DNA of 64,000 nucleotides, taken from assembly GCF_964355755.1 (NCBI RefSeq), contig NC_092675.1:19048912-19112911 (forward strand), read 5' to 3'. The notes under the pieces are model-generated. The model saw only the letters and a list, made by a program, of their open reading frames with translations, did not search any database and was not told where the DNA came from. The DNA comes from Antedon mediterranea. Its lineage: Eukaryota > Echinodermata > Crinoidea > Comatulida > Antedonidae. This document shows positions 9,041-58,000 of the stretch, one piece after another. A program made the position numbers and the translations under genes. The stretch's first letter is position 1. Each line of letters opens with the position of its first letter.

Positions 9041-11457
9041 AGTATAATCCCACCGAGTGACTTCCAGGAGCAATCCGCCGTTTTCTCACAAATACAGTAC
9101 CAAATTTCACTATAATATTTAAAATCGTAATTGAGTTACACTCAGATTTAAAAAGATGAGGGCTGAGTAAACGGGATCAGCGGTCCTACTCTAACTTATA
9201 CTGGACTATTAAGGAGGTCCCCTAGTATAATCCCACCAAGTGACTCCCAGGATCGGAGCAATCCGCCATTTTCTCACAAATACAGTATCAAATTTCACTA
9301 TAATATTAAAGATCGTAATTGAGTTACACTCAGATTTAAAAGATGAGGGCTGAGTAAACAGGGCCAGCGGTCCTACTCTAACTTATACTGGACGACTAAG
9401 GAGGTACCCTAGTATAATCCCACCAAGTGACTCCCAGGAGCAATCCGCCATTTTCTCACAAATACAGTATCAAATTTCACTATATAAAAAATCGTAATTG
9501 AGTTACACTCAGATTTAAAAGATGAGGGCTGAGTAAACGGGACCAGCGGTCCTACTCTAACTTATACTGGACGATTAAGGAGGTCCCCTAGTATAATCCC
9601 ACCAAGTGACTCCCAGGAGCAATCCGCCATTTTCTCACAAATACAGTATCAAATTTCACTATAATATTAAAGATCGTAATTGAGTTACACTCAGATTTAA
9701 AAGATGAGGGCTGAGTAAACAGGACCAGTGGTCCTACTCTAACTTATACTGGACAACTAAGGAGGTACCCTAGTATAATCCCACCGAGTGACTTCCAGGA
9801 GCAATCCGCCGTTTTCTCACAAATACAGTACCAAATTTCACTATAATATTAAAAATCGTAATTGAGTAAAAACTCAGATTTAAAAGATGAGGGCTGAGTA
9901 AACAGGACCAGTGGTCCTACTCTAACTTATACTGGACGACTAAGGAGGTACCCTAGTATAATCCCACCAAGTGATTCCCAGGTGCAATCCGCCATTTTCT
10001 CACAAATACAGTATCAAATTTCACTATATAAAAAATCGTAATTGAGTTACACTCAGATTTAAAAGATGAGGGCTGAGTAAACGGGACCAGCGGTCCTACT
10101 CTAACTTATACTGGACTATTAAGGAGGTCCCCTAGTATAATCCCACCAAGTGACTCCCAGGAGCAATCCGCCATTTTCTCACAAATACAGTATCAAATTT
10201 CACTATAATATTAAAGATCGTAATTGAGTTACACTCAGATTTAAAAGATGAGGGCTGAGTAAACAGGGCCAGCGGTCCTACTCTAACTTATACTGGACGA
10301 CTAAGGAGGTACCCTAGTATAATCCCACCAAGTGATTCCCAGGTGCAATCCGCCATTTTCTCACAAATACAGTATCAAATTTCACTATATAAAAATCGTA
10401 ATTGAGTTACACTCAGATTTAAAAGATGAGGGCTGAGTAAACGGGACCAGCGGTCCTACTCTAACTTTTACTGGACTATTAAGGAGGTCCCCTAGTATAA
10501 TCCCACCAAGTGACTCCCAGGAGCAATCCGCCATTTTCTCACAAATACAGTATTAAATTTCACTATAATATTAAAGATCGTAATTGAGTTACACTCAGAT
10601 TTAAAAGATGAGGGCTGAGTAAACAGGGCCAGCGGTCCTACTCTAACTTATACTGGACGACTAAGGAGGTACCCTAGTATAATCCAACCAAGTGACTCCC
10701 AGGAGCAATCCGCCATTTTCTCACAAATACAGTATCAAATTTCACTATAATATTAAAAATCGTAATTGAGTTACACTCAGATTTAAAAGATGAGGGCTGA
10801 GTAAACAGGACCAGCGGTCCTACTCTAACTTATACTGGACGACTAAGGAGGTACCCAAGTATAATCCCACCAAGTGACTCCGAGGAGCAATCCGCCATTT
10901 TCTTACAAATACAGTATCAAATTTCACTATAATATTAAAATCGTAATTGAGTTACACTCAGATTTAAAAGATGAGGGCTGAGTAAACAGGACCAGTGGTC
11001 CTACTCTAACTTATACTGGACGACTAAGGAGGTACCCTAGTATAATCCCACCAAGTGACTTCCAGGAGCAATCCGCCATTTTCTCACAAATACAATATCA
11101 AATTTCACTATAATATTAAAAATCGTAATTGAGTTACACTCAGATTTAAAAGATGAGGGCTGAGTAAACGGGACCAGTGGTCCCACCCTAAATTATACTG
11201 GACGACTAAGGAGGTACCCTAGTTTAATCCCACCAAGTGACTCCCAGGAGCAATCCGCCATTTTCTCACAAATACAGTATCAAATTTCACTATAATATTA
11301 AAAATCGTAATTGAGTTACACTCAGATTTAAAAGATGAGGGCTGAGTAAACAGGACCAGCGGTTCTACTCTAACTTATACTTGACGATTAAGGAGGTCCC
11401 CTAGTATAATCCCACCAAGTGACTCCCAGGAGCAATCCGCCATTTTCTCACAAATAT
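9041..11457 (+). repeat. ~182-bp satellite array, 13 full copies plus a partial
   Basis: Units start with agtataatcccacc at 9041, 9224, 9411, 9590, 9772, 9955, 10134, 10315, 10494, 10675, 10858, 11039, 11221 and 11403 (last one partial). Unit length is 179-187 bp. Two unit types alternate in the middle of the array. One ends in ggactattaaggaggtcc and the other in ggacgactaaggaggtacc. The dimers 9955-10314 and 10315-10674 are each 360 bp and share private variants such as gtgattcccaggtgc, so the array has higher-order structure. No gene lies in it. Confidence 0.95.
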
Positions 11458-27017: not shown

Positions 27018-27060
27018 TAAGTTTAAAATCAATCTTCTACTGCAATAATCTATCTCTAAG

Positions 27061-30000
27061 ATGTTTGACGTTGAACCAAGTGATTCAGTGAGTTGCGTAA
27101 GCTCCAAACGCTCATCATCGAGCAGCAGATCTAGGATCCGGGTTAAGGCTGAAGCTGCAGCATTAAGGGAACGAGCTGCCAGACAGAAAGAAATGCATGA
27201 CTTGGAAATGCAGGAATTGGTGCTCAAACAAAAGAAGGCGGATGTGGAATTGCAAATTGAAATCGGGGCAATTGAAGCTGCCGACAAAGTTTACAACGAA
27301 GCTGAACAGGACGAGGATGAGGCAGTAGATCGTGAACTCGAAGATCTCTCTCTACCAAAGCTTCAAATTGAAACAACCACTCCCAAACTTCCATCAGGAA
27401 ATCTGCCCGACCAACGATTTGCTCCTGATTATCGAGCAGATTATGTTCCAAAGGAGGAGACAGAACTGTTAGGGAATCCTATGCTGTGGCAGCCTACACC
27501 TCAACCAGCAGTGTTCCAACCATTTAATCTGGATGCTCCTGTATTCCACCAACACAAGCAGATCGATGCCATAGATAGACTGGCATCCACAATGATGAGA
27601 GCACAAGATAAGCAAAATGAAGCATTGAGACAGATCGTCCAACAACAGCAACAAAGTGTTACTGCGCTTACCTTGCCTAACCCGTCAATGAAGTTATACA
27701 GTGGCAATCCTGCTGAATACTGCGAGTTTGTCACTTCATTCAAACATCTTGTTGAGAACAAAACTGTGAGCCAGAGTGCAAGACTGCACTACTTGGTACA
27801 GTACACGACTGGGGCTGTACAAGAGTTGATGAGAAGCTGTCTATCGATGAGTGATGATAAAGGATATGTTGAGGCGAGACGCTTGCTAAAGGAAAGATAT
27901 GGACAAGCATACAAGATAGCTGCTGCCCACGTTCAACTCTTGCTGGATTGGCCGATTATCAAAGTCGAGGATGGCATAGCTCTACAACGCTTCTCTACTC
28001 AACTAACAAGCTGTGCAAATACACTTCAGGAAATTGGATACCTTAGCAAGCTAGATAATCCAGACAATCTTCGGAAAATCATTGAACTCCTTCCGTATCG
28101 ACTAAGGCTAAGATGGCGGGAAGTGGTTGACACTATCATCGTAAAGGAAAAGAGAGATGTAAACATTAAGGATATTACCAAGTTTGTCACCGATAAGGCT
28201 AGGGTAGCAACTCATCCAGTCTTTGGTAAAATAGAGCCAGTGAAGTCTACCAATTCTCCAAATTCGGATAAATTATCGACCAACCACAAATCTAGCAGTT
28301 ATGCCGTTCACAATTCTCAGTCAAACACACCTGTAACATCACAACCAACGTGTCCGCTATGCTGTGAGGACCATTGGCTCTCCAGATGTGAGCAGTTCCG
28401 ACGGAAGTCACTCAACGACCGATGGAAATGTGTAAATGACAAGAAAATCTGTATCAACTGTCTTACAGTTGGACATTTTGTGAAAGATTGTCAAAAGCAA
28501 AGTTTCTGCAAAATATCCGGATGCACGAAGAAACACTCAACATATTTACATCCCAAAGGTGAGACTGCAAGTAATGCTGGTACTGTTGCTGTACAACCAG
28601 TTCAGACATCTCCAGCAACCTTCAGTGGTGAACAGGTCAACATGTCGGCATCGAGAAGCACATCAACCGTTACTGGTCTTGCTGCCGTACCTGTGAGAGT
28701 CAAGGCTCCAGGAAGTGCCAAGCTTGTAGAAACCTATGCATTTCTTGATAGTGGATCCAACACAACTTTCTGCACCACTGGTCTACTAAAGCAATTAGGG
28801 ATATCATCGAATACTGTAGACTTATCATTGACAACCATGAACGGAGTAAATAGACCAATCCAGTGTGAACTTACAAAGTTGGAGATTTTGGATTTAAATC
28901 ATGGACATTCCGTCTTACTTCCAAACGTCTATTCAGTGCAAACCCTACCAATTTCTACCGATACGATCGCTACTCCAGATGACATCAACAAATGGCCTCA
29001 CCTAGCTGGGATTAAAGTAGATAAAATAAATGCAGATATTGGTATTCTCATTGGAAGTGATGTGCCAGAATTGCTACAACCGCTGGAAGTACGCGAATGC
29101 CACGATGGTGGTCCATTTGCCACTAGAACAATATTTGGCTGGGTTGTCAACGGCCCATTGGGAAGGAAGAACTCTGGATCAACACACTGCGCTAACTACA
29201 TTGATTCACATGAAGAGTTGTCAACACAGTTCAAGGACTACTGTAATCTAGAATTCAATGACAGCCTGTACAACCCGAAGGCTGCGATGTCGCAAAATGA
29301 CAAACAGGCATTGCGAATTATGGAAAAAAGCGCTGTTTTGAAAGATGGACATTATGAGATTGCGTTACCATGGAAGTCTTATCCACCAAATCTGAAGACC
29401 AACAAAATACAAGCTGAACGCAGACTTCAGTCCCTCAAACGACGTCTAGACAATGATCCAATTGTATTTGAGAAATATCGCATGTTCATGAACGACTTGG
29501 TAAGAAAGGGCTATGCTGATAAGGTGGAAGTTAATGGTTCGGTACCTGAAGGATGGTACTTACCACATCACCCAGTATTTCATCCTCAAAAACCTGACAA
29601 GGTACGTGTTGTTTTTGACTGTTCGGCGAGATATGGAGGCACATCATTAAACGACCAGCTTCTACAGGGGCCGGACCTTACTAACACACTAGTCGGGGTA
29701 CTAACCCGTTTCCGGCGAGAACAAATCGCTTTCATGGCGGACATTGAATCGATGTATTACCAGGTACGAGTACGAAAAAATGATTCAGACTACCTTAAAT
29801 ACCTCTGGTGGCCAGATGGCAATACCGAGAAGCAGCCTGAAGAGTACAAGATGATGGTTCATCTGTTTGGGGGTGTGTCATCTCCCAGCTGCGCCAACTA
29901 TGCACTAAAACGTAATGCAGAAGACAACCGAGATGACTTTGATGCAGAGACAATCAAAACAGCGAAGGAAAGCTTTTATGTGGATGATTGTCTTCATTCT

Positions 30001-32697
30001 GTAAAGACAGAGCCAGAAGCCAAACAACTGATCAAACAACTTCAGGAACTACTAAACCAGGGCGGGTTCCGTCTGACAAAGTGGACGTCAAATTCAATAA
30101 ATGTTATTGAATCAGTTCCGGATGCCGAAAGGGCAAAATCGGTGAAGGACTTGGATCTGAACTTTGGTGGCATGATGTTAACTGAACGAGCATTAGGTGT
30201 CAAATGGAGCCTGTCAACTGACACATTTGGTTATAGTATCAACAAGAAAGAACGTCCAGCGACAAGACGTGGAATGTTATCAATAACAAGTTCGGTGTAC
30301 GATCCACTTGGATTTGTCGGTCCATGCATCTTGCCTGCAAAGGCCATTCAACAAGAACTGTGCCAAAAGGGTTTAGGATGGGATGACAAGATTCCAGATG
30401 CTTGCAAAGCAAGGTGGGAGGATTGGCTCCAGGATCTTCCTAAGCTGGAGCAGTTCAGCATTCCAAGATGCTTCAAGCCTCTAAACTTTGAAAATGTAGT
30501 TAAACGAGAACTACATCACTTCTCAGATGCTTCAAGTCATGGATATGGTGCAGTATCTTATCTTCGACAAATCAATGTAAATGGAGACATCAGTTGTGCT
30601 ATTGTGATGGCAAAATCCAGGTTAGCTCCTCTCAAGACGATGACTATACCAAGAATGGAGTTATCGGCAGCTGTTGTTTCCACACGATTAGACAAAATGA
30701 TTAAACAAGAACTGCAAACACCTATTGATAGTTGTACGTTTTGGACGGATAGCACATGTGTTCTACGCTATTTAGAAAACAAGGAAACACGATTTCAGAC
30801 GTTTGTAGCTAATCGAGTCACAACCATACTTGATCAAAGTGACGCAAGTCAATGGAGATTTGTGGATGGGTTACACAACCCTGCAGATGAAGCATCAAGA
30901 GGTATGACAGTAAATGAATTACTGATCAATCAACGTTGGAAGGAAGGTCCAGAATTCCTAAAGCAACCTGAGAGGACATGGCCACAAAGACCAGCAAACA
31001 TGGGTGAAATCCCACAAGATGACCCAGAGGTAAAGGCAAAATCCACAGTCTGTGCTACTGGTATAAATGTAATTGACTCGATTTCATCAGTCATTAACTA
31101 CTACTCATCATGGGAGAAGTTGAAGAAGTCGTTTGCATGGATTTTGAGGTACAAAGAAAAGTTACGAGAAGTGGTTCGCAGGCGTAAGGCTGGAGACGAT
31201 GTTTCATTTAATAGAAATGACACAGTTGATCCAATCAATGTTTTGGAGATGAAAGGTGCTGAAATTGCTATCACGAAGCATGTACAGAAATGCTTTGAAG
31301 ACGAGCAAGTTTGCCTGAAGCATGTAAGCCTATCTCAACCCTGCAATACCAAAAAGCAACGAGCACTACCAAAATCCAGCAAGATCTACAAACTCGATCC
31401 CATCTTAAGTGAGGGAGTGATCAGAGTAGGGGGCCGTCTTCAAAATTCACCTATCAACGGTGACATGAAACATCAGATAATCCTACCAAAGAATCACCAC
31501 ATAGTGAAGCTCATTACTACATACTATCACCATTTATCAGGACACAGTGGACTAGAATACACACTGTCCCTAGTTCGACAGAAGTTCTGGCCGATTGATG
31601 CACGTACTGCAGTGAAGAAAGTTCTAAACGAGTGTTTCAGCTGTAAGAGACGCCAATCATCAGTTGGGAAACAAAAAATGGCTTCACTTCCGCAAGACCG
31701 AGTAACACCTTCGAAGCCACCGTTCACGTACGTTGGTGTTGACTGCTTCGGCCCATTCGAAGTAAAAAGGGGGAGGTCAAATGTGAAGAGATATGGTGTC
31801 CTTTTCACATGTCTCACTGTACGAGCAATCCACATCGAAGTTTCAAACTCACTTGACACGGAGTCATTCATGAATGCTATGAGAAGATTCATAGCACGAA
31901 GAGGACAGCCAGAAGAGATTCGATCAGATAATGGAGGAAACTTCAAAAAGGGAGAGAAGGAACTGAATAAAGCAATTAAAGAGTGGAATCAAGGACAAAT
32001 CCATGAATTCTTGTTGCAACGAAATGTGAAATGGTTATTCAATCCACCAATGGGATCTCATCATGGAGGAGTATGGGAGCGCTGTATTCGGACAGTGAGG
32101 AAAGTCATGATGGCTGTGCTGAAACAACAAGTGCTTGATGATGAAGGCCTAAACACTTTAATGTGTGAAGCAGAGGCTATTGTTAATGGTCGGCCGATTA
32201 CTAAGATATCGGATGACCCTCGTGACATGACGCCTTTAACTCCGAATCATTTACTGCTGTTGCGAGGAGGGAACAGCTTACCTCCTGGTAACTTTTCAAA
32301 GGAGGATATTTATCGTCGACGATGGAAACAAGTACAGTACTTATCAAATGTGTTCTGGCGACGATGGGTACGGGAGTATTTACCATCACTGCAACAAAGA
32401 CAAAAATGGAATGTGCAAAAGAGAAACTTTGCTGTAGACGATGTTGTGCTTGTTCTTGACGAAAACACACCACGAAGTTCATGGCCATTGGGAAGAGTTC
32501 TTGAAGTGTACAGCAACCAAAAGGATGGACTTGTACGGTCAGTGAAAGTAAAGACAAACACATCAACGCTTGTGAGACCAATTGACAAACTGGTCCTTCT
32601 TGAGAATGCGAAATATGAACTTTTGAACATTACAGATTGTTCTTCTGCGTTTTATAAGATCCAATTTTGGAATTTATCTTTTCCTTATAAATTTTAA
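27061..32697 (+). CDS. BEL/Pao Gag-Pol polyprotein, intact
   Basis: Single frame of 1878 codons, carrying all functions needed for reverse transcription and integration. It opens with a charged Gag (~1-400) with a DUF1759-like region. Cys/His knuckles follow (CPLCCEDHWLSRC ~430; CINCLTVGHFVKDC ~463). The aspartic protease has LDSGSNTTF (~562). The reverse transcriptase has FDCSARY, FMADIESMY and catalytic FYVDDC (~973). The RNase H-like part has HFSDASSHGYG (~1151) and WTDSTCVLR (~1227). The integrase has an HHCC zinc finger (HHLSGHSG ~1491, CFSCKRR) and the D-D-E core: GVDCFGPF ~1559, SDNGGNF ~1621 and HHGGVWER ~1667. A DUF5641-like C-terminus ends the protein. No stop or frameshift was found, and the length is usual for the superfamily. 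It is probably expressed from the left LTR. The start is the first ATG, 44 bp after the LTR. Confidence 0.97.
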   Translation: MFDVEPSDSVSCVSSKRSSSSSRSRIRVKAEAAALRERAARQKEMHDLEMQELVLKQKKADVELQIEIGAIEAADKVYNEAEQDEDEAVDRELEDLSLPKLQIETTTPKLPSGNLPDQRFAPDYRADYVPKEETELLGNPMLWQPTPQPAVFQPFNLDAPVFHQHKQIDAIDRLASTMMRAQDKQNEALRQIVQQQQQSVTALTLPNPSMKLYSGNPAEYCEFVTSFKHLVENKTVSQSARLHYLVQYTTGAVQELMRSCLSMSDDKGYVEARRLLKERYGQAYKIAAAHVQLLLDWPIIKVEDGIALQRFSTQLTSCANTLQEIGYLSKLDNPDNLRKIIELLPYRLRLRWREVVDTIIVKEKRDVNIKDITKFVTDKARVATHPVFGKIEPVKSTNSPNSDKLSTNHKSSSYAVHNSQSNTPVTSQPTCPLCCEDHWLSRCEQFRRKSLNDRWKCVNDKKICINCLTVGHFVKDCQKQSFCKISGCTKKHSTYLHPKGETASNAGTVAVQPVQTSPATFSGEQVNMSASRSTSTVTGLAAVPVRVKAPGSAKLVETYAFLDSGSNTTFCTTGLLKQLGISSNTVDLSLTTMNGVNRPIQCELTKLEILDLNHGHSVLLPNVYSVQTLPISTDTIATPDDINKWPHLAGIKVDKINADIGILIGSDVPELLQPLEVRECHDGGPFATRTIFGWVVNGPLGRKNSGSTHCANYIDSHEELSTQFKDYCNLEFNDSLYNPKAAMSQNDKQALRIMEKSAVLKDGHYEIALPWKSYPPNLKTNKIQAERRLQSLKRRLDNDPIVFEKYRMFMNDLVRKGYADKVEVNGSVPEGWYLPHHPVFHPQKPDKVRVVFDCSARYGGTSLNDQLLQGPDLTNTLVGVLTRFRREQIAFMADIESMYYQVRVRKNDSDYLKYLWWPDGNTEKQPEEYKMMVHLFGGVSSPSCANYALKRNAEDNRDDFDAETIKTAKESFYVDDCLHSVKTEPEAKQLIKQLQELLNQGGFRLTKWTSNSINVIESVPDAERAKSVKDLDLNFGGMMLTERALGVKWSLSTDTFGYSINKKERPATRRGMLSITSSVYDPLGFVGPCILPAKAIQQELCQKGLGWDDKIPDACKARWEDWLQDLPKLEQFSIPRCFKPLNFENVVKRELHHFSDASSHGYGAVSYLRQINVNGDISCAIVMAKSRLAPLKTMTIPRMELSAAVVSTRLDKMIKQELQTPIDSCTFWTDSTCVLRYLENKETRFQTFVANRVTTILDQSDASQWRFVDGLHNPADEASRGMTVNELLINQRWKEGPEFLKQPERTWPQRPANMGEIPQDDPEVKAKSTVCATGINVIDSISSVINYYSSWEKLKKSFAWILRYKEKLREVVRRRKAGDDVSFNRNDTVDPINVLEMKGAEIAITKHVQKCFEDEQVCLKHVSLSQPCNTKKQRALPKSSKIYKLDPILSEGVIRVGGRLQNSPINGDMKHQIILPKNHHIVKLITTYYHHLSGHSGLEYTLSLVRQKFWPIDARTAVKKVLNECFSCKRRQSSVGKQKMASLPQDRVTPSKPPFTYVGVDCFGPFEVKRGRSNVKRYGVLFTCLTVRAIHIEVSNSLDTESFMNAMRRFIARRGQPEEIRSDNGGNFKKGEKELNKAIKEWNQGQIHEFLLQRNVKWLFNPPMGSHHGGVWERCIRTVRKVMMAVLKQQVLDDEGLNTLMCEAEAIVNGRPITKISDDPRDMTPLTPNHLLLLRGGNSLPPGNFSKEDIYRRRWKQVQYLSNVFWRRWVREYLPSLQQRQKWNVQKRNFAVDDVVLVLDENTPRSSWPLGRVLEVYSNQKDGLVRSVKVKTNTSTLVRPIDKLVLLENAKYELLNITDCSSAFYKIQFWNLSFPYKF

Positions 32698-33477: not shown

Positions 33478-34679
33478 TGGGCCATTTGTATGCATAATGA
33501 CAGGTTTAGCCGCTGTTAAGTTGAGGCACTGTGTGTGTGGAACCGGGACAAGATCTTTATTAAATAATTATTACAACACAACAGGATATGCGGTTTCCCC
33601 ACCACCCAGACCCAAACAGCTGATCGTCCACACTGCGCAGTCAGAGAGAGGAGACTGTACAGCATGCACTGTCGTCATGTCTTATTAAATTAGGGCCTAC
33701 TTAGTCCTAGCTAGAGCTTTTAGGCATCTAGGTAGTCCTTCCTACTAGGCCCTAGTACTAGACCTAGGCCTAGGCCCTAGCCGCCTATTTCTATTATTAT
33801 ATATTTTCTAGCCTATCCAGCAGGGCCACCAGACCGTGTCAGTGTGTGTGATATCCTCTACCAAGCCTAAACTAATAAAAGCAGAGGCCTAGCCTAGCTA
33901 GCCGCCTACATATAGGATTAGGCAATATATTACCAAAATAATTGAAAAACACTTGCTTTGTATTCTGATTAAATGTAAAAGCATGTCAAAATTTTCCATT
34001 GCCTCCTCTCCGATCCCTTCAATAATTCTCTCCTCTTCTTTTTTTTCTTTTGTGACTAGTTGTTTTTAAAGAGCGCCACCAACTTGTATAAAGGCAAAAA
34101 CAAAACGTAAATCTGCTGTGGTTTTCGAATCACAGATTTAATATAGTGTTTTCGATCCCATAGGCCTATATTAAATGCTTCATTTGAAAAAAAAACATTT
34201 TGGAGATTTTATTTTTCTGATCTGTGGGTGATAGTTGAAATTACTTTGTAAACACTATTCTTTTTTACTCAAAATTGTAATAGGCCTAGAGAGGCATTAA
34301 ATTAAATAATCATATGAAAAATAAAGTAATTAACATTTTGTCACAGCAAAAACATTTTATCCGAAAATAAACTTTTATTTTATTTAATTTTCGCTGTACC
34401 TACAATATAATACTATTGTATATTATTGTGTTTGTTTGTTTGTTTGTAGTGTGACATTTAATTGACTTGAACCCAGGGCGATTGTTAGCCAAACCACCAA
34501 GCATGCACCAAAGCCACAACTTCATAATGTAGCCTGTATTGTCCCCAAAAAACATGAAAACTGAACTTTAATAACAGACTTTCAGTATTTTATTTTGCAG
34601 TTTTAAAAGTTATTCCCTTCCTTATAAATACAAACAAAACAAAATAATGATTTCACTTATATTATAAAAGGTGGTTAAT
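33478..34679. other. Intergenic, no gene seen
   Basis: Begins with a slightly GC-richer 200 bp downstream of the retrotransposon, then runs of 'taggcctagg'-type words and AT-rich DNA. An 83-codon frame at 33437-33688 starts in the LTR and has no recognisable content. Confidence 0.5.
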
Positions 34680-35882
34680 TAGATTATATGCATTCAATTA
34701 TCTTGAAAAATCAGTTTCATCCAGCTAAGTCAATTTTTCAGCAGAGTATATACCTTATGGCCAGGAATCGATGTGGTTATGTTTTCACGGTGCGCAATAA
34801 AAAAATATGCGGTCTACGCACGATTTAACGAAATCACGTTTGTAATCATATTATCTTCATGAAGCATGAATCACAATTAAACAAAATTTGGTACTCATAC
34901 ATTTCAGGTCATATTTCATCATAATGGCAATACAAGTACGCGCACTTAAAATTTTCGATGAAATTAGAGTAGGCCTACGTTTCAGGATTGCCATGAGTGC
35001 GCAGATTTTTGCACGCGCACTGCGCATTAAACGGTAATATGCACTCTTTTTGACTGTTTTACAACCTTTCTTTAATAATATCATCATATTTGAGTTACTT
35101 TTCAATTCGAAATTGCGTTATACGAGCACGTCAAAAGTGACAGGCTACGCACGTGTAAGTTAACAAAATAGTGAAAATATGTTAAATTTTAAAATTAATA
35201 TAGATCGTTAGAATGCTCGGGACACCTATTTTGCAATTCAAGTGATGTATCATATGTGATGATTACTGCCTTTCCGCTGAAAAGTCTGCCGACATTTCTG
35301 CCTGGCTGCTCCGTAAATCTCTTTTATCATATGTATGATTTATTATAAAATTAAGAGAACAAAAGGTGATTAAGTCATCATTAATTGCATATTCAATTTA
35401 ATAAAATTAATTTTGACAATCAAACTAAAACAATCTCTACTAAAGTGGTTACTGTAAATACAAGGAGGAATCTTTCTTCAACTTTTAGTCAGCTGTGTAT
35501 GGCTGGGTGGTCTGTGCTCGTCAAGGTACGAGGTCGAGTCTCAATTGGGAAACAAAAAGAAATAAGATCTTTTTTTTCCGTATTATTTGTTCAATTTTAT
35601 TCCTTAGTGTATAGATTATACACATGATTTATAATTAAATTTAGATAAAAAGTAACTTATGTCTTTATTATTATGTAACAAATGTGGTTTATGATATTAT
35701 ACACAGATGGATCTTTGATCGGATTGTGATACCGGCTATTGTATTTGCGTTAGCAAGATCCTATCATATAATATAAATAAACAAAGATTCCGACAAAATC
35801 AATCAATCAATATATCTTTTAAAAATCAATTATCTTTATTTAAATCAATGTATGTAACCTATAATTCGTCATAGTGACGAAT
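34680..35882. mobile_element. Hairpin-ended repeat family, copy 2
   Basis: Ends in the hairpin attcgtca/tgacgaat (35864-35882), like copy 1 at 17870. The block ggaatcgatgtggttatgtt... acgcacgatt... is shared with the copy at 39160, as is ttatacgagcacgtcaaaag further in. It holds a SINE-like piece (ggctgggtggtctgtgctcg ... ggtcgagtctc, 35498-35550). Confidence 0.65.
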
Positions 35883-35889
35883 AAAATCT

Positions 35890-37010
35890 TACTTAAACTT
35901 ACTTATAATTCCTACCTGTACTCCTGATCTTTATATCATATTAATTTAATGTTGTCATGCAATCCTTCAAACAATATATAAAACGTACTTTTTATATATA
36001 TTTTCACACTCAATAAGTGGTCTACATCCGTGACAGCACAAATGTGTGGTATATAGTGTGCGATTGTACTATGGTACAAGATGCATGATGCTGTTAGCCA
36101 TCTTGGTACCAGTTTGGCTACCAATGATGTTGACACCAGTCTACCACGATGAGGTAGCATCTCCGACTTCAGACTGGGATGTTTTTTTTTGTTTTTTGTT
36201 TTTTGTTTTTTGTTTTTTTTAAATTCCTTATCGAGCTAAAACTTATATTAACTTAAATAAGTGAAGATTATTGAGTAAATTACTTATTTTAACTATTTAC
36301 TATACAATAATATAGGCCTAAAACCTATTATATACGAAATTCATAATGAAAAATATTTTAATAATTACAATATTATTTTTGGGGGGTTTTTTTTTTTAAA
36401 TTATTTCTTACTAACTAAATCAACTTACGATAACATTTTTTTAATTAAAATTTATTATTAAAATATAAACTCGTAAAAAAATTAAACCAAAAACTTATAT
36501 CAATTAAATATTATTAACAATTTTTTGGAAAACTAAGTAAATAATGTTGTTTTTGTTTTTTCCTTTTTTTTTTGTATTGCTTACTATCTAAAAACTTACA
36601 TTAGCATAATAACGGGAAGTTTAATTACTGAAACAAATTACTTTATTTTAATCATTATTATCAATAATCTATTTTTAATTTATTATTGGTATTATTAATA
36701 TCCTCATTAGAGCTTTTTTTTATCATTATAATGTAACAATAGCATATTGTTTTTAATCCACATTACTTATCATTATTACTGTTTTTCTAAGTACAAGTGC
36801 TGCAGTAATCTACATTTTTAAAACGTTATTTTATATATTTATTACCTTAGTACTTAGATATTGCACATCTTAGAAAATCTATTTAGTTTAACTTTTCTTT
36901 AATCAATTTAATCGTCTTAACATTCCTGTAACTATATTCTAGATCTAATCCCTTAAACTGTTTTTTTAATGATGGTTACTTAAATTATGTTTGAAATTAT
37001 CTTAATTTGT
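35890..37010. other. AT-rich spacer with homopolymer runs
   Basis: No gene. The ~40-bp stretch at 36145-36190 (gaggtagcatctccgacttc, then agactgggatg and poly-T) recurs inverted inside the MITE at 48957-49076. Several poly-T or g/t-rich tracts occur at 36181-36220, 36379-36400 and 36545-36575. Confidence 0.5.
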
Positions 37011-37879
37011 TTAAGAACTATCGTCATTATTCTCAAAATAGAATGAGTCTTGTAATTCAAATTTCTCAAGAATTGCGTTAATTATTAAGTAAGCTATTGC
37101 TGATGGCTTTACTGTTGTAAGAGATATTTTATTTGTAATCAAATATTTGACAGATTCGTGTCTCACTCTTTCTATTCTACGTTTGTTGTTGTTGGTTGTA
37201 GCTTTACTGATAGCAATATCGCAATAAATGTGAACAAAATCAAGACAAGTGACACTATTGATATTAAAGTTTACTATCTGTAGTATTTTAAATTCTATTT
37301 GGGCATTTTTTTTAGGATTAAAGAAGCCAAGATTCCGGAGGCAGTCACAAGCATAAGGGATGATGTGTTTAGATTGGTATCGTTCAGCACATTTCAATGC
37401 AAGGCAAAATGATGCAATTGCATATTCTTCGAGATCTTCAAGTTGAAATGCTGTGTAATCAGAGATTAGTACATTTTCTATAATTGTAAGGCTACGATGA
37501 ACAATATCATAATCGATCATGTATTCATAACGTATGAGTTCAGATCGAATATTACATAAAAATTCTACCATATGATCTTTAACTGATTGTGATTCAAAAT
37601 GTGCCCATGGATTTTCAGATATTTTTTCACGATTAATTAATGAATTAAAATATTCTTTATTAGATTCAAGTTCCAAATTTTCATTTGAAATGTCGTTAGA
37701 ATTGCTATCATCACTACCTGGAAAATGAAACAAAACATCACCATGTCCTACTACTACAACAGTGCTACTATTAGTACTACTAGACTTTTCTCCTATGCTG
37801 CTACTGCCACTGTTGTTGCTACTAACACTAACTACTCTCACCACTATTGCTACTAGTGCTATTGGGCATAGTGCTGCAG

Positions 37880-37936
<57 letters not shown>

Positions 37937-38686
37937 TCACTATCACTGTCAATACTAATAATGATGTCACTATCACTACTCCTATCTCTACTTATTATAA
38001 TAGGCATATCATTTGTATTTGGAGACATTTGATCTTCACTAGGCCAACTACTATCACTATCACTGTCAATACCAATAATGATGTCACTATCACTACTCCT
38101 ATCACTACTTATTATGATAGGCATATCATTTGTATTTTGAGACATTTGATCTTCACTAGGCCAACTACTACTATCACTATCACTGTCAATACTAATAATG
38201 ATGTCACTATCACTACTCCTATCACTACGTACTATGATAGGCATATCATTTGTTTTATGGAGACAACATTTGATCTTCACTAGGCCAACAACTACTATCA
38301 CTATCACTGCTGCTACTAATAATGATGTCACTATCACTACTTATATCACTACTTATTATGATAGGCATATCATTTGTATTTGAAGACAACATTTGGTCGT
38401 CACTAGTAGGCCTATTTAATTCATGATTAAAATGACAATAATTGATATCAGCTGATTTGTTTTCCGATTTTATAAGTTTATCTAATTCGTGTAAATTACA
38501 AGTTGGGTTAACATTAGCGTTTCTTCTGACATAAGGACGCGCCCTGTTTCTAGGCCTAGACCTTCTATTATTCCTCACCTGGAGGAACCTAGCGTACTTA
38601 GCGGCGGGATACTCATTTGGTCTCACCGCATTCTGGGCTTCTTCTAAAGAAGCATTATATCTTCTTTTAAATATCAACTTTGCCAT
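37011..38686 (-). CDS. Cyclin-box-like protein, 2 exons, frameshifted
   Basis: Exon 2 (37717-37011, 234 codons plus stop) starts after tttccag. It encodes a region that reads like a cyclin N-terminal box: MVEFLCNIRSELIRYEYMID, LEEYAIASFCLALKCAERY (compare the usual LASKYEE position) and KILQIVNFNINSVTCLDFVH (compare the LxFxLxxPTPLDFL end of the box). Exon 1 (38686-37842) opens with MAKLIFKRRYNASLEEAQ and a basic Arg-rich stretch. It then has four ~40-residue repeats with the core NTNDMPIIIS + SDSDIIIS, and a poly-Ser run. The donor g|gtgaga at 37842-37840 joins exon 2 in phase. The third repeat seen along the + strand (second in the protein) is 124 bp instead of a multiple of three. A 1-base insertion near 38253 makes a stop at 38255, so as written the gene is broken. 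It may be a pseudogene, an assembly error in a repeat, or an unseen splice. The cyclin class is not determinable by eye. Confidence 0.62.
37861..38395 (-). repeat. ~120-bp coding minisatellite plus TAC/AGT trinucleotide run
   Basis: ggcatatcat recurs at 38003, 38120, 38240 and 38364, giving periods 117, 120 and 124. A (CTA)n run at about 37876-37934 encodes poly-Ser on the minus strand. Length variation in this array is the cause of the frameshift in the cyclin-like gene. Confidence 0.9.
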
Positions 38687-47015: not shown

Positions 47016-48956
47016 CACCAGAAATATTCATTTGGATATATGTTCAAATTAAAGATTAGTTTAAAGGTTGTAAATTCTATAAGGTACATTTAAATATTAT
47101 ACTGTACACCATAATTATATATTCATTGGATTTACAGGCCTGTACACTTAGTCGTAAATGGATTAGTGAGAGGAGTGTCTTTTTAATGAAATAAAATCAA
47201 ATTGTATAAGCATAAAGTATTGTCATATCGTGCCATATTTGAATATGGCATATCAATTGTATAGGCTTATTGTATTGTCACATTTCTCAATTTGAATATG
47301 TACTCTAACACTTTATACTAACTGGTGCTATTAGTATTAAAATCAGCAATCAATGTCATTGTTATTACTGTACTAAAAAGCATTTTTCATTAGGAAATCA
47401 AAAGCTGGAGATAAGGTAAAACACGCTTATGATAAAATTCCAAAGTTGCTTTCAGATCAGAATGTTATTTTACAGAGTAATTGTGAATTATGACCCAATG
47501 GCATGGCATATCATTTTTTTCTGAGGTAAAGAACGTCCTAATTATGGCAAGGCTGCTACCCATAAATAGAGGGTTTCCTATAACTTGTAGGATGTTAAGC
47601 GTACACCTATAAATACTAATGTATATGTCAATGATTTAAAAATGCACATAACATGTGCCTTATTAATAATTTGGTTTGGGTACAATTCATCTTTAAAAGT
47701 TCTTTTTGGATAATTTTTGAATTTATTTTTATGTTACATTTGTTTTCAGAAGAGTATTGAAAGGTAACATTCTTGTTTATCGACCATTGTATTATAAATG
47801 TCGCCATGCAAAGTAATAATGTATAGTAATAATATTATAATCAGATAGTTTTTTTTATATATATATAATAATTAATAAAGCCTGGTTATATATATTTTTT
47901 TCTATAAATAATACATTATTGATTTGGCTGTTGCTACTTTATTTTTTAAATTACAAAAAGCTTAGTTGGTGCTAAATAAAGGGCAAAAGCTACCATTCTA
48001 AAAAAACTATGCAAATATATGTACATTGTATTAATTGTATAAAATATATACAAAATGTAAAATCTTTTGGTGCAAAGTAAGTTTGAAGATCGTTTTTTAA
48101 ACAGGTATTATTACAGAGGAACATCACTTAGACACCTACAGTATGACGGCTGATTAAGTGAATACATTACCGTAGTGAATTTGTCATACATGTATGATGT
48201 AGTCAACTCTCCTAATACAACTCTCTCTCTGAAAACCAAAAACTCTTTCAAAACTAGACTGTTTTTGTATTGAGGGCAAAAAGGTCCCAATTCTAAAACA
48301 CAATTAGTCCAGATATATTGGCCAGCCAGAGGGAGAGATAACTGTATCATATTCCCTTCCAATAAAAAGATCTAAGAATGCATATATTTTTTTGTAAGAT
48401 GAAAAAAAAATGTGGGTTTTTTGGTCAAACCAAAATGTAGTAAAAGATGAAAGGGATTTTTAAAAATTATGTCTTAAATATATATATTGTAGTAGTATAT
48501 TTATAGAGTTTATAGAATATAGTTTGTACTGTACAACCTGCAATCCAATGTATTAAATTGTATTTTGGACAAACTCTACTTGCTCTGATGAATGAGACAT
48601 AACACATTACTCCTTTTCAGACAACCATCTTGTATCATGTTCGGTGCCTAGTAACTTTGTAAAATATTAAGCCTTTACATGAATGGTTTGGGTTGATGAT
48701 GAATGTATTGTTAAATGGTATGGATTGAGGACTTTTGGCAGACTTGGCTTGCCATACTCTGGCCTTTTTTTCCCTGGTACTATACTTTTTCTGTTATTAT
48801 GTAATAATTTTCTTATAATGTGAATATTGGGACACAAAATGGTACGCTTCAAACAATAATTGACTGTTCTCAGGGCTTCTTGCTTTAAATTAATAAAAAG
48901 AAATTGGACACAAAAGAGTGTAATTGTTGATTCTTTGAATGATTACCTAGTGTTAA

Positions 48957-49076
48957 GCTTTGTCTACACTATTAAACAAAAAAAAAACATCCCAGTCTGA
49001 AGTCGGAGATGCTACCTCATCATGTGCCCATATGGACATGTCATATCACTACTATATTTGATAGTGTAGACAGAGC
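48957..49076. mobile_element. TTAA-family MITE with an inner insertion
   Basis: Ends gctttgtctacactatt / gatagtgtagacagagc, with ttaa at the left flank. A ~42-bp foreign stretch (aacatcccagtctgaagtc ... ctacctcatc) sits inside and is shared, inverted, with 36145-36190. Confidence 0.7.
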
Positions 49077-50386
49077 TTTACTCATAACTCATACACAAGA
49101 CACCAAATTAAGCTTAATACCCCATGTAGGGGGTCTGACTAGGTTTTTAATAATAATCATCTTAAATACACAAAATGATAAATCAATCTTGACTCATTAA
49201 ACATATAAACAAATTCTTTGATATTTCCGATTATTTAAAAAAAAAAAACACTGATTTTCCAGTTAATAAAATAACGATTTAAATCTTAAAACTTGCCCTA
49301 AACTCTTGATTCTAAATGTTGATTAGAATAACAAAGTCTAAAATCTGAATATTAAACACTATTTCCTTTACATAAAGATCTAATTTAAGCAGTAAACTCA
49401 ATTACTGTATGTTTTATAATGAAGTATATTGTAAAATTCTCAAACAAACTTATCACCCTAAACTACTATCTATATTACAGTTTCTTTTTAACAGAATATT
49501 TTTTCTACAAATAAATGTGATGCAAACGGGTTGATTATATTTATGAGATGATCTATACAAAACACAACAGACAAGTTAGAAGAATTTCATAATTGAACAC
49601 AAACAGTGCTTACAGCAAAACTTAAATATAAGTTCAGGTTAATACTTTTTAACTATAAAAAATGAATATCAAAAAGCACAATAAAGAAACGTTTAAGACT
49701 AGATAAAGAGTCTTCATCTTTTAGGCATTACATCCCTTCATAAAAAATGTGAAATAAACTATTAGTATGATCATGTACGACATTTTCTAATTTAGCTTCA
49801 CAGCTGCAACCTCTCCACTATTTCTTTTTGAACAAACATGCTTTTTAAAATCATTTTAGTTTAATATCTCTGCAAAATACATGTTAGCAGATGCATTAGT
49901 ATAATTTGTGCAATTTGCAACTTTACTTGGTAATTTAGTTGGTAAATCGCCAAAACTAAAAATGTACACAGAGGTTTTAAGTCTTTGATTATTATCAATT
50001 ATGATTAGGCAGCTGACTCATTTAATTAACACCTATACTATTTTTCTTTAAGAATAAAAAAATTAAAGTCATGTCAATACACTACCATACCAGTGATAAA
50101 TCAGTTATCAACATCACGTTTAATAATGTTATTATAGTAGTTAGGCCAGCATTTCTTGAGCTTTTATGTTGCTACAGGACCATTGACTCCTCCCCTCCTG
50201 CGGTTCACTAAGTAAGTGCCCACAACAGAACAAGCAGAGCCTAGCACTTAAAAGGCTCTCGATCACCAGTTATTTATACACATCTTGGTCGGTTGCTGGT
50301 ATCGTATCTTGGATAGGTTTGTTATTCCAGTTTGTTTTATCCAATCCACTCCGTTTTTTTAATCGTCCCTCGTTCTTCAGATCTGA

Positions 50387-55053: not shown

Positions 55054-58000
55054 ATGAAAAAGATGGCAGACTTGCAGCAATATGAAAAGGTTCAAATCTT
55101 ATGTTCTTGCGGTATTCGTTCACCTATCACAAAACTTTACTTCTGCAAACATTGTATGAAACTAAGATGCAAACGATGTGTATCGCACGAGGTACTGTAT
55201 TTCATTATTTTATTAATGTACAGCGAGTATGCATCCGATTCTTGCTAGACTAGCCAGCCGTTACTTTTTTTAGCCAGTTTGTGACTGCTGAGTCAAGTGA
55301 GCCGGCAGCAGCAGCAGGAGCACAGGACAGTGAGGGTGGAACCGGTTGTGGGCGTGGCAATTTTCCACTGCTCTTCTCTGTCTGTGTTGTCTGCTCTAGC
55401 AGGTCATAGAATAATTCATCACTATATAATATAGGCCTAAATCTGAAATAAATTAGACAAAGACCAAGCTAATTTTTTTAATAAAATAAACTTTGTGTAG
55501 CCTAACTAGAGGCTAGGCCTACTACTAGCCTTAGTTAGGTAGGCTAGGCCTAGTATAGTATTAGTACACTACTATCCTGGCTATGTAGGCCTAGCCTACT
55601 GACACTATCTGTATTTATTTTCAGCATTACACTATTTTATTTTATTTTTTAGGGCTAGAGTAAATGTCAAATTATTTTGTGGCATTTTTCCAATCATAAT
55701 TTAAAAAATTTAATAATAAATATAGGCTATAATTTAGTATAATTATTATTTTTCATTTACATTTTTGACAATGATAAAGAGATGAGTAAAAAAAAATTAA
55801 AGACACCTTCCCTACAATTTGTGACGTTTTGTAAAAATAATACATATATATTACTTTAAAAACATTAAACCAGGTCATTCCTTGTCTTAAATGTACGTTT
55901 TATGGTAAATTATAATAAAAAGTGAGAAACAATGCACTACCCAAGTAGCTCGCGGTGACTGACCTCTCGTGGTCTCTAGGCTTAGTTTTGTAGGCCTAAC
56001 TGGTAAACATCGGTAACGTACGAACATCGTACGCTAGCTATATACCTAGCCTGACGTTGTATAGTTGCTGCATTAATTGTCTTTCTATTTTTGCCAGACT
56101 CCGTTAATACAAATTGGGGAAAACCCGGTATTTTCGCTGAAAAGTTAGGAGTCTTCCATTTATTTTGGCCTCACGATCAATCGAAAAGTGGGTGAATTAC
56201 AGAAGAAAAACGTAAAAGTTATAAGCTGCTTCTATATGGTAAGCATATGAGTAGGTCTGGTTATAAAGACACTGTACAAATTGTTTCTGATTTCTTTCAG
56301 GTCGATTCTCATTTTTGCCCAAATTGTCTTGAGAACATGCCATCTGCAGAGGCGAAGTTGAAGAAGAATAGGTTTGTTATATTCATAACTTTATATATTA
56401 ATATTAGATAGTTTATTTAATTTTTGGAACAGCCATCAAGCCAACATCGGGTACAACTCCAAACCTAGAACTAATAAATGATCTGTGAATAAATACAATG
56501 ATACACCTGGTGGCTACCAATTCCACTGACTTTTGGTGTACATACCTGATTACCACCTACAGGTAATTAGGATGTGCTGATGCTCATCAGCCCAAAAAAT
56601 TGTAGGCCTATATTAAAATAATACACCTAAATAAACTTTGGATTTGCATATATACCACCTAATTAGGATGTACTGATGCTCTTGGAAATATTTGCCCAAA
56701 AAATTGTAGGCCTATATTAAAATAATACATCTAAATTAACTTTGGATTTGCATATATTTACCATACCAGGTGCGCAAACTGCTTCGATTGTCCAAGCTGT
56801 TCTCATACACTGTCAACACGAGCGACCAGCGTTGCACAACCTGATGTTGAGGATCAAAAGAAGAGTACCACGAGAAAAGTATACTACTTGGCGTGTGGAT
56901 TCTGCCGATGGAGCTCTCGAGATATTGGAATGAAAGATAAGCAAGCAGGTAATATATGTTATAATTTTGATTTAATGTACAAAAACAAAGATTTGTAAAC
57001 TAAACTCATGTCATTTTCTTTATCTAATTAGCTAGTGGGCAGTGGGATGAAAAGGAGAATGCAAACACCACAAGGGTAAGTATTGTATAGTGCTTTTTTA
57101 GCTTGTTGATACTCGGCTACCAATCCCAGGATCCTGGGTTCAAATCCTGTCAGACGCCAATAAAGACTTTTGTAGAGCATCATGTGTATTAATGTTTGTT
57201 TTGTGAACAGGGTTGCCACCTTTAAGAATGAACTCACTTATGGCTACCCTTGCTATGTGCTCAGCTACCCTTGCTATGTGCTCAGCTACCCTTGCTATGT
57301 GCTCAGCTACCCTTGCTATGTGCTCAGCTACCCTAGCTATGTGCTCAGCTACCCTTGCTATGTGCTCAGCTACCCTTGCTATGTGCTCAGCTACCCTTGC
57401 AATGTGCTCAGCTACACTTGCTATGTGCTCAGCTACCCTAGCTATGTGCTCAGCTACCCTTGCTATGTGCTCAGCTACCCTTGCTATGTGCTCAGCTACC
57501 CTTGCAATGTGCTCAGCTACACTTGCTATGTGCTCAGCTACCCTTGCTATGTGCTCAGCTACCCTTGCTATGTGCTCAGCTACCCTTGCTATGTGCTCAG
57601 CTACCCTTGCTATGTGCTCAGCTACCCTTGCAATGTGCTCAGCTACCCTTGCTATGTGCTCAGCTACCCTTGCTATGTGCTCAGCTACCCTTGCTATGTG
57701 CTCAGCTACCCTTGCTATGTGCTTAAATGAAAATACAATAGAACAACAGCTAAACAATTATGTATACCATTCTCCCAATAATGAGCATTAGTATGAATTT
57801 TATTATTTATCAATATTTTATTTTTTTTTGTACCTATTTTGGATAATAATAATTAATATTTCCTCATCAGATTTCTGACCTGTTGGAATACTACAGACAG
57901 CTGTCTATCCGTGAAAAACAAGAACGTGAACGAAAAAGATTTACACGGCGACGTACTTATTTTAGTATGCCAGACAAGTCAGCAAGCAGTCGTACATCTC

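What the first reader, a model, noticed from the sequence alone, without database searches (positions are those of the whole stretch)
37011..38686. Cyclin-box-like protein fused to an expanding Ser/Asp repeat domain, with a frameshift inside the repeat
Exon 2 reads like a cyclin box. Exon 1 is a basic N-terminus followed by four ~40-residue acidic repeats and poly-Ser. I know of no described cyclin with this layout. One repeat is 124 bp rather than 3n, so the gene as written is broken. This could be a recent loss, an allele-specific change or an assembly slip. If the frame is intact in other individuals, it would be an unusual and fast-evolving cyclin-like gene.
Basis: partly seen in the sequence, partly recalled or inferred. 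Interest (0 to 1): 0.7.

Follow-up and report, generated by a model that had tools for sequence, protein, structure and literature searches.

The report
Broken copy of ribozyme-tailed cyclin-like gene
The window holds one broken copy of a dispersed, intron-free animal gene that encodes a divergent cyclin-like protein and is followed by a strongly conserved RNA that looks like a self-cutting ribozyme; intact copies sit elsewhere in the same genome, apparently spread between rolling-circle transposons.

Summary
The locus is one of at least 18 places in this 354-Mb genome matching its cyclin-like part. Nine keep one uninterrupted single-exon frame, 367-617 aa; the window copy changes frame inside its repeats. 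The C-terminal domain is a divergent cyclin box: Cyclin_N matches 9 of 10 members, best E 1.9e-4, with displayed scores below Pfam's cut-off. Two further features matter more. (1) A ~96-nt downstream element matches an HDV-like ribozyme model end to end (E about 0.003, below the gathering score). It is 87-97% identical between diverged copies whose flanks look random. It lies downstream, on the same strand, at 17 of 18 cyclin loci, and also recurs near an unrelated gene family on C5. (2) Seven of 7 young copies, on seven contigs, carry a repeat on both sides whose ends resemble Helentron-type unit ends; 0 of 3 old copies do. Best reading: a selectively kept, Helentron-dispersed gene with a 3' ribozyme. 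Self-cleavage, expression, kinase binding and mobility are untested.

The parts
38255..38686 (-). first open frame of the broken gene: ATG, conserved basic N-terminus (MAKLIFKRR...), first repeat unit; stop at 38255-38257
   Evidence: same N-terminus in nine intact copies
37828..38340 (-). second open frame, carries the further repeat units and the poly-Ser tract
37927..38388 (-). array of four Ser/Asp repeat units (period about 117 bp)
   Evidence: 0-4 units in other copies
37011..37991 (-). third open frame; its end, 37014-37718, is the cyclin-like domain with conserved lead-in; stop 37011-37013
   Evidence: Cyclin_N match in relatives corresponds to about 37257-37523 (my conversion)
36082..36177 (-). 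HDV-like ribozyme-like element; predicted cut just 5' of it, 833 nt after the stop codon
   Evidence: RF02682, 27.2 bits, E 0.0032; constrained island; 31 places in the genome
39154..40170 (-). upstream flanking repeat R1, ending in its 3' hairpin; its 5' part is missing here
34678..35889 (-). downstream flanking repeat R2, from its 5' end to a 3' end lacking the full hairpin

Best explanation
The locus is a decayed copy of a gene cassette found in at least 18 places. An intact cassette is a single-exon gene for a protein with a conserved basic N-terminus, an unstable Ser/Asp linker and a divergent cyclin box. Its 3' region carries an HDV-like ribozyme. Inferred working: the ribozyme cuts the transcript just 5' of its first helix, 0.4-1.1 kb after the stop codon, and so sets or limits the 3' end of the message; the protein binds a CDK-type kinase through the cyclin box. 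Inferred spread: an older gene lineage on C3 and C7 came to lie between two non-autonomous Helentron elements (R), and Helentron machinery copied the composite to other contigs by end bypass. Shown by sequence: copy number, intact frames, dN/dS below 1 among intact copies, the constrained ribozyme-like island, its association with the gene, the flanking repeats and the likeness of their ends to Helentron-type ends. Inferred: cleavage, kinase binding, mobility.
For: 26 rows in 18 places for the cyclin-like part; nine uninterrupted frames; dN/dS 0.18-0.52 among the nine intact copies against 0.28-0.90 for the window copy. Cyclin_N in 9 of 10 members and in 4 of 4 full-length proteins; profile comparison with cyclin B in a register that pairs the invariant Lys and Glu, E 2.6e-4. 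RF02682 is the best RNA family in 3 of 3 copies tested; GGCTAAC kept in 19 of 20 copies; island 87-97% identical between near-random flanks; downstream and same strand at 17 of 18 cyclin loci. R matches on both sides in 7 of 7 young copies, 0 of 3 old ones; R ends resemble the unit ends of a tandem array downstream of a long Helitron_like_N frame.
Against: Displayed Cyclin_N scores are below the curated cut-off, in one protein another family (SOG2) scored better, profile probability is only 42%, PDB sequence searches gave nothing and the structure model was poor. RF02682 scores 26-27 bits against a gathering score of 44; a whole-genome search with that family returned one sub-threshold place (E 1.9) and rang, also below cut-off, in 6 of 14 bacterial and archaeal control genomes; pair counts show no covariation beyond shuffles. 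Polyadenylation signals lie upstream of the element in nine of nine cyclin copies, so it may lie beyond the message. Left ends of the young copies vary inside R1, and no R-like 5' end was found in the upstream pieces of two long Helitron frames.
Confidence: 0.6

Rival explanations
1. Ordinary duplicated or retroposed host gene family. The R repeats are common neighbours that were carried along, and the conserved element is a ribozyme or other 3' RNA that does not take part in spreading.
For: Copies are intronless in all nine intact cases; R-type sequence is common in the genome (1015 first-look candidates, 40 scored); left ends vary.
Against: R lies at corresponding positions on both sides in 7 of 7 young copies on seven contigs, and no homology between these copies was seen beyond R in the 10-16 kb compared, apart from short repeats.
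Confidence: 0.27
2. The conserved element is not an HDV-like ribozyme but another structured 3' element, for example a protein-binding or localisation signal shared by two gene families.
For: Sub-threshold Rfam scores, control genomes ring below cut-off, no covariation, no cleavage data.
Against: Best family in 3 of 3 copies, full-length model match with the P1-P3 order, L3-like loop and a J4/2 cytosine; the helix order was written down before the Rfam test (note).
Confidence: 0.15
3. The C-terminal domain is not a cyclin box but an unrelated helical domain; the likeness is chance.
For: Sub-threshold scores, no PDB sequence hit, low-confidence model without cyclin matches among the 50 rows shown.
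Against: Cyclin_N is the family matched by most members (9 of 10); the Lys and Glu columns are invariant and in register.
Confidence: 0.12

Closest known systems
Cyclins (Pfam PF00134; cyclin A/B)
   Same: Cyclin_N match over its C-terminal two thirds; Lys and Glu that contact the kinase in cyclin A (residue roles recalled) are invariant here
   Different: Below curated cut-offs; no MRAIL-type patch seen by eye; second fold short; single-exon, multi-copy, with an unstable Ser/Asp linker
HDV-like ribozymes (RF02682; those of R2 and L1Tc retroelements and of the CPEB3 intron, PMC8256844 passages)
   Same: P1, P2, P3, P4 order, loop and J4/2 cytosine match end to end
   Different: Lies downstream of a protein-coding gene in sense orientation rather than at a retroelement 5' end or in an intron; shared by two unrelated gene families; activity untested
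Non-autonomous Helentrons (DINE-1/HINE; PMC4067079 passages)
   Same: R has palindromic ends, a 3' hairpin and many solo copies; its ends resemble unit ends near this genome's long Helitron_like_N frames
   Different: Here a whole gene with dN/dS below 1 lies between two of them; transposition is not shown

Membership tests
Cyclin (PF00134) | Pfam Cyclin_N at or above the curated cut-off (23 bits) | tested here: not met
   Displayed scores 16.2-20 bits; 9 of 10 members match at E <= 1, best 1.9e-4
Cyclin (PF00134) | CDK-contacting Lys and Glu in the first fold (roles recalled) | tested here: met
   K109 and E142 invariant in 10 of 10 and in register with cyclin B
Cyclin (PF00134) | cyclin fold in three dimensions | tested here: inconclusive
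   Single-sequence model all-helical, mean pLDDT 47; Foldseek uninformative
Cyclin (PF00134) | binds and activates a CDK | not testable with these tools
   needs expression
HDV-like ribozyme | nested double pseudoknot with P1-P4 | tested here: inconclusive
   97.8% of cells paired against 25.5-60% when slid, but no covariation beyond shuffles
HDV-like ribozyme | cytosine at the start of J4/2 (PMC10879173 passages) | tested here: met
   GGCTAAC in 19 of 20 copies; the exception is L038:5433-5555
HDV-like ribozyme | Rfam gathering score | tested here: not met
   26.0-27.2 bits against 44; gathering scan of the window found nothing
HDV-like ribozyme | self-cleavage 5' of P1 | not testable with these tools
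   needs RNA
Non-autonomous Helentron (R repeat) | 5' and 3' palindromes and ends shared with an autonomous element | tested here: met
   R ends ACTAGATTT...CGTCACTA and TGACA...hairpin resemble unit ends in L050/L051; that these units belong to the long frame upstream is inferred
Non-autonomous Helentron (R repeat) | gene cassette moves as R-gene-R with ends at R termini | tested here: inconclusive
   R on both sides in 7 of 7 young copies but left ends vary; exact terminus motifs upstream in 4 of 7 and downstream in 4 of 7

The most novel reading that the evidence does not exclude
A class of animal gene cassettes in which a self-cleaving HDV-like ribozyme is a standard, selectively kept 3' module, shared by at least two unrelated genes (the cyclin-like one, and one on C5 with repeated KRVCF...DTPELP motifs). 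It would form message 3' ends by self-cutting, in most young cyclin copies leaving a genome-encoded A-rich end, and let cell-cycle-type genes travel between Helentron elements.
Probability: 0.25. Interest if true: 0.88.

Novelty: new variant of a known kind. Interest (0 to 1): 0.62.

Why it matters
HDV-like ribozymes of animals are described mainly at retroelement 5' ends and in the CPEB3 intron (PMC8256844, passages). A near-invariant one kept downstream of two unrelated multi-copy genes would point to a direct part in making messages, testable with a 100-nt RNA. A cyclin-like gene kept intact in dispersed copies between Helentron repeats would be a mobile cell-cycle gene whose benefit, to host or to element, can be asked.

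Tried and rejected
Two exons: rejected, nine copies read through. R as LTRs of a retrotransposon: considered because R lies in direct orientation on both sides; set aside because R has palindromic ends and occurs alone. R as arms of an inverted-repeat transposon: inverted pairs exist (L021, L022), but five of seven solo copies are 1.44-1.48 kb with the same two ends. Viral origin: no relative of the protein and no exact ribozyme core in viral contigs. SUMO-interaction reading of the DMPIIISSD repeats: in the script four of nine proteins (L002, L003, L004, L010) were read out of frame and so not scored; of five scored, one (L005) exceeded its shuffles and four had no motif; not claimed. Species: not identified (no COX1 match in the assembly).

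Full report
What was checked. On the minus strand the window carries a frame from ATG 38686, a tandem array at 37927-38388 and a cyclin-like part that ends with the stop at 37011-37013; the coding sense uses three frames in turn. The window is C6:19048912-19112911 of a 354-Mb genome in 18 contigs.

It is a family. The cyclin-like part gave 26 rows (all 26 first-look candidates scored), which I group into 18 places on C1, C3, C4, C5, C6, C7 and C10; the tool calls such counts lower bounds. I read ten of these as loci. Nine (L002-L010) have one frame from a shared MAK start to the end, 367-617 aa, without an intron; the tenth is the window. The other eight were not translated in full; their rows show stops, partial matches or pieces in different frames. 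Repeat units number 4 in the window and 2, 4, 3, 1, 0, 0, 0, 0, 0 in L002-L010; the longest Ser run ranges from 2 to 64. The repeat thus belongs to the young copies and is unstable, while N-terminus and cyclin-like domain are kept.

Selection. Nei-Gojobori comparison of the C-terminal part gives dN/dS 0.18-0.33 among the young intact copies L002-L005 and 0.18-0.52 among all nine intact copies; the window copy gives 0.28-0.90, and 0.90 with L004, its closest by dS. This fits constraint on intact copies and decay of the window copy. It is a simple pairwise method and I computed no significance.

Cyclin or not. The window protein alone has no Cyclin_N hit. Of ten members scanned nine match Cyclin_N, best E 1.9e-4; the member displayed scores 20 bits against a cut-off of 23. 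Four of four full-length proteins match at E 0.002-0.009, again below cut-off; in L007 another family, SOG2, scored better, on the Ser-rich part. Profile comparison with four cyclin B-type sequences (three of this genome, one human) gives E 2.6e-4 but a probability of 42%, in a register that pairs the invariant K109 and E142 with the cyclin Lys and Glu (their kinase-contact role is recalled). PDB sequence searches found nothing. The single-sequence model is all-helical with mean pLDDT 47, and its Foldseek list shows no cyclin in the 50 rows displayed. I call it cyclin-like, not a certified member.

The downstream element. A search with 35900-37100 showed a stretch of about 110 bp that recurs more widely than its surroundings. 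Reading it by hand suggested the helix order of an HDV-like ribozyme (note). Rfam then gave RF02682 as best family in the three copies tested: window E 0.0032, L019 0.0029, L036 0.0038, each over the whole model but at 26-27 bits against a gathering score of 44. A whole-genome search with that family returned one place, E 1.9, near the C10 copy; only 62 of 8,699 candidates were scored, and 6 of 14 control genomes also rang below cut-off, so this search adds little. From 19 sources I extracted 20 copies (17 sources gave one or two; L015 and L039 did not fit the pattern); 19 of 20 keep GGCTAAC. Over seven diverged copies, 21 pairs, the element is 87-97% identical; the stretch 160-60 nt upstream is 53-66%, and the 100 nt downstream 53-62% in 20 pairs and 74% in one (L035 with L036); shuffled downstream sequence gives 57-61%. 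The 45 nt directly upstream were left out of that comparison; they are partly shared between old cyclin copies and the C5 family. Coding dS between L001-L005 and L006-L010 is 0.28-0.65. Pair counts on 19 copies (the one without GGCTAAC left out): 97.8% of cells paired against 25.5-60% for slid partners, but no covariation beyond shuffles, because P1 and P2 hardly vary.

Where it occurs. A 111-bp query gives 32 rows, which I group into 31 places. Eighteen lie downstream and on the same strand at 17 of the 18 cyclin loci (C10 has a partial and a full one; the exception is C3:8243767); nine lie on C5; three on C7 have no cyclin match, and the 3' regions of L038 and L039, which hold them, resemble that of L018; one is half a copy in this window. 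On C5 the element follows, in L020, L034, L035 and L036, sequence of another multi-copy family with repeats such as KRVCFNIHDTPELPSIDEMLDADRS and no convincing Pfam match; in L037 I saw only the 3' part, and the remaining C5 places were not read. The predicted cut lies 406-1116 nt after the stop in nine cyclin copies; most young copies have an A-rich stretch right before it, L019 and the C5 copies do not. AATAAA or ATTAAA occurs between stop and element in nine of nine cyclin copies; of seven C5 elements read, three have none in the 700 nt upstream.

How it spread. A repeat R, 1.44-1.48 kb in five of seven solo copies read, matches on both sides of the gene in 7 of 7 young copies (window, L011-L016; the left match of L014 is only about 115 bp) and not around 3 of 3 old copies (L017-L019). 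Exact terminus motifs were found upstream in 4 of 7 (window, L013, L014, L015) and downstream in 4 of 7 (window, L011, L012, L013). Both R ends resemble the unit ends of a tandem array in L050, which lies downstream of a long Helitron_like_N frame, and R also matches L050/L051 internally (71-75% over 113-129 bp; 79% over 43 bp at the 3' end). Helitron_like_N gives 87 rows in the genome, about forty with open frames of 2,800-3,200 aa. That L050's array belongs to the frame upstream is inferred, and the upstream pieces L052 and L053 showed no R-like 5' end. Thomas et al. 2014 (PMC4067079, passages) describe non-autonomous Helentrons of this build and suggest end bypass or composite transposition for linked gene duplications. 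Against a simple version, the left ends of young copies vary within R1.

Literature. Searches (listings only) for HDV-like ribozymes with retrotransposon and UTR, with Helitron, with sea urchin or drz, for self-cleaving ribozymes with 3' UTR and retrogenes, for cyclin with Helitron gene capture, for Helentron with tandem or gene capture and for intronless multicopy cyclins listed no title or abstract that describes this arrangement. PMC8256844 and PMC10879173 were read in passages. The library lacks most subscription papers, so this is weak evidence of novelty.

Verdict. The given locus is a broken copy, but it points to something unusual: a dispersed, selectively kept cyclin-like gene with a near-invariant HDV-like element downstream, an element shared with an unrelated gene family, in a setting of Helentron-like repeats.

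Noticed in passing
L020, L034, L035, L036 (C5): A second multi-copy family with repeats like KRVCFNIHDTPELPSIDEMLDADRS (KRVCF recalls PP1-binding RVxF motifs, from memory) also precedes the ribozyme-like element.
   Followed up: partly
window 48952-49081: Half of the ribozyme-like element (48974-49024, 96% over 51 bp) lies between 25-nt inverted repeats, like a small inverted-repeat transposon that took up a piece of it.
   Followed up: partly
genome-wide; L050: 87 Helitron_like_N rows, about forty with open frames of 2,800-3,200 aa; L050 holds a tandem array of similar units: apparently a young and abundant Helentron-type family.
   Followed up: partly
window 27049-32697 (+): An uninterrupted 1,882-aa frame that reads like a retrotransposon polyprotein (BEL/Pao-like by eye, from memory; not tested).
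   Followed up: no
window 9041-11456; L019 6507-9999: A 182-bp tandem array in the window and an array of similar period beside the old cyclin copy in L019; whether they are the same satellite was not tested.
   Followed up: no
window 57243-57723: A 21-bp tandem array that stays open in several frames.
   Followed up: no
L014 7140-8369 (-), L039 829-2684 (-): Reverse-transcriptase-like frames (by eye) inserted near or within cyclin cassettes or their remnants.
   Followed up: no
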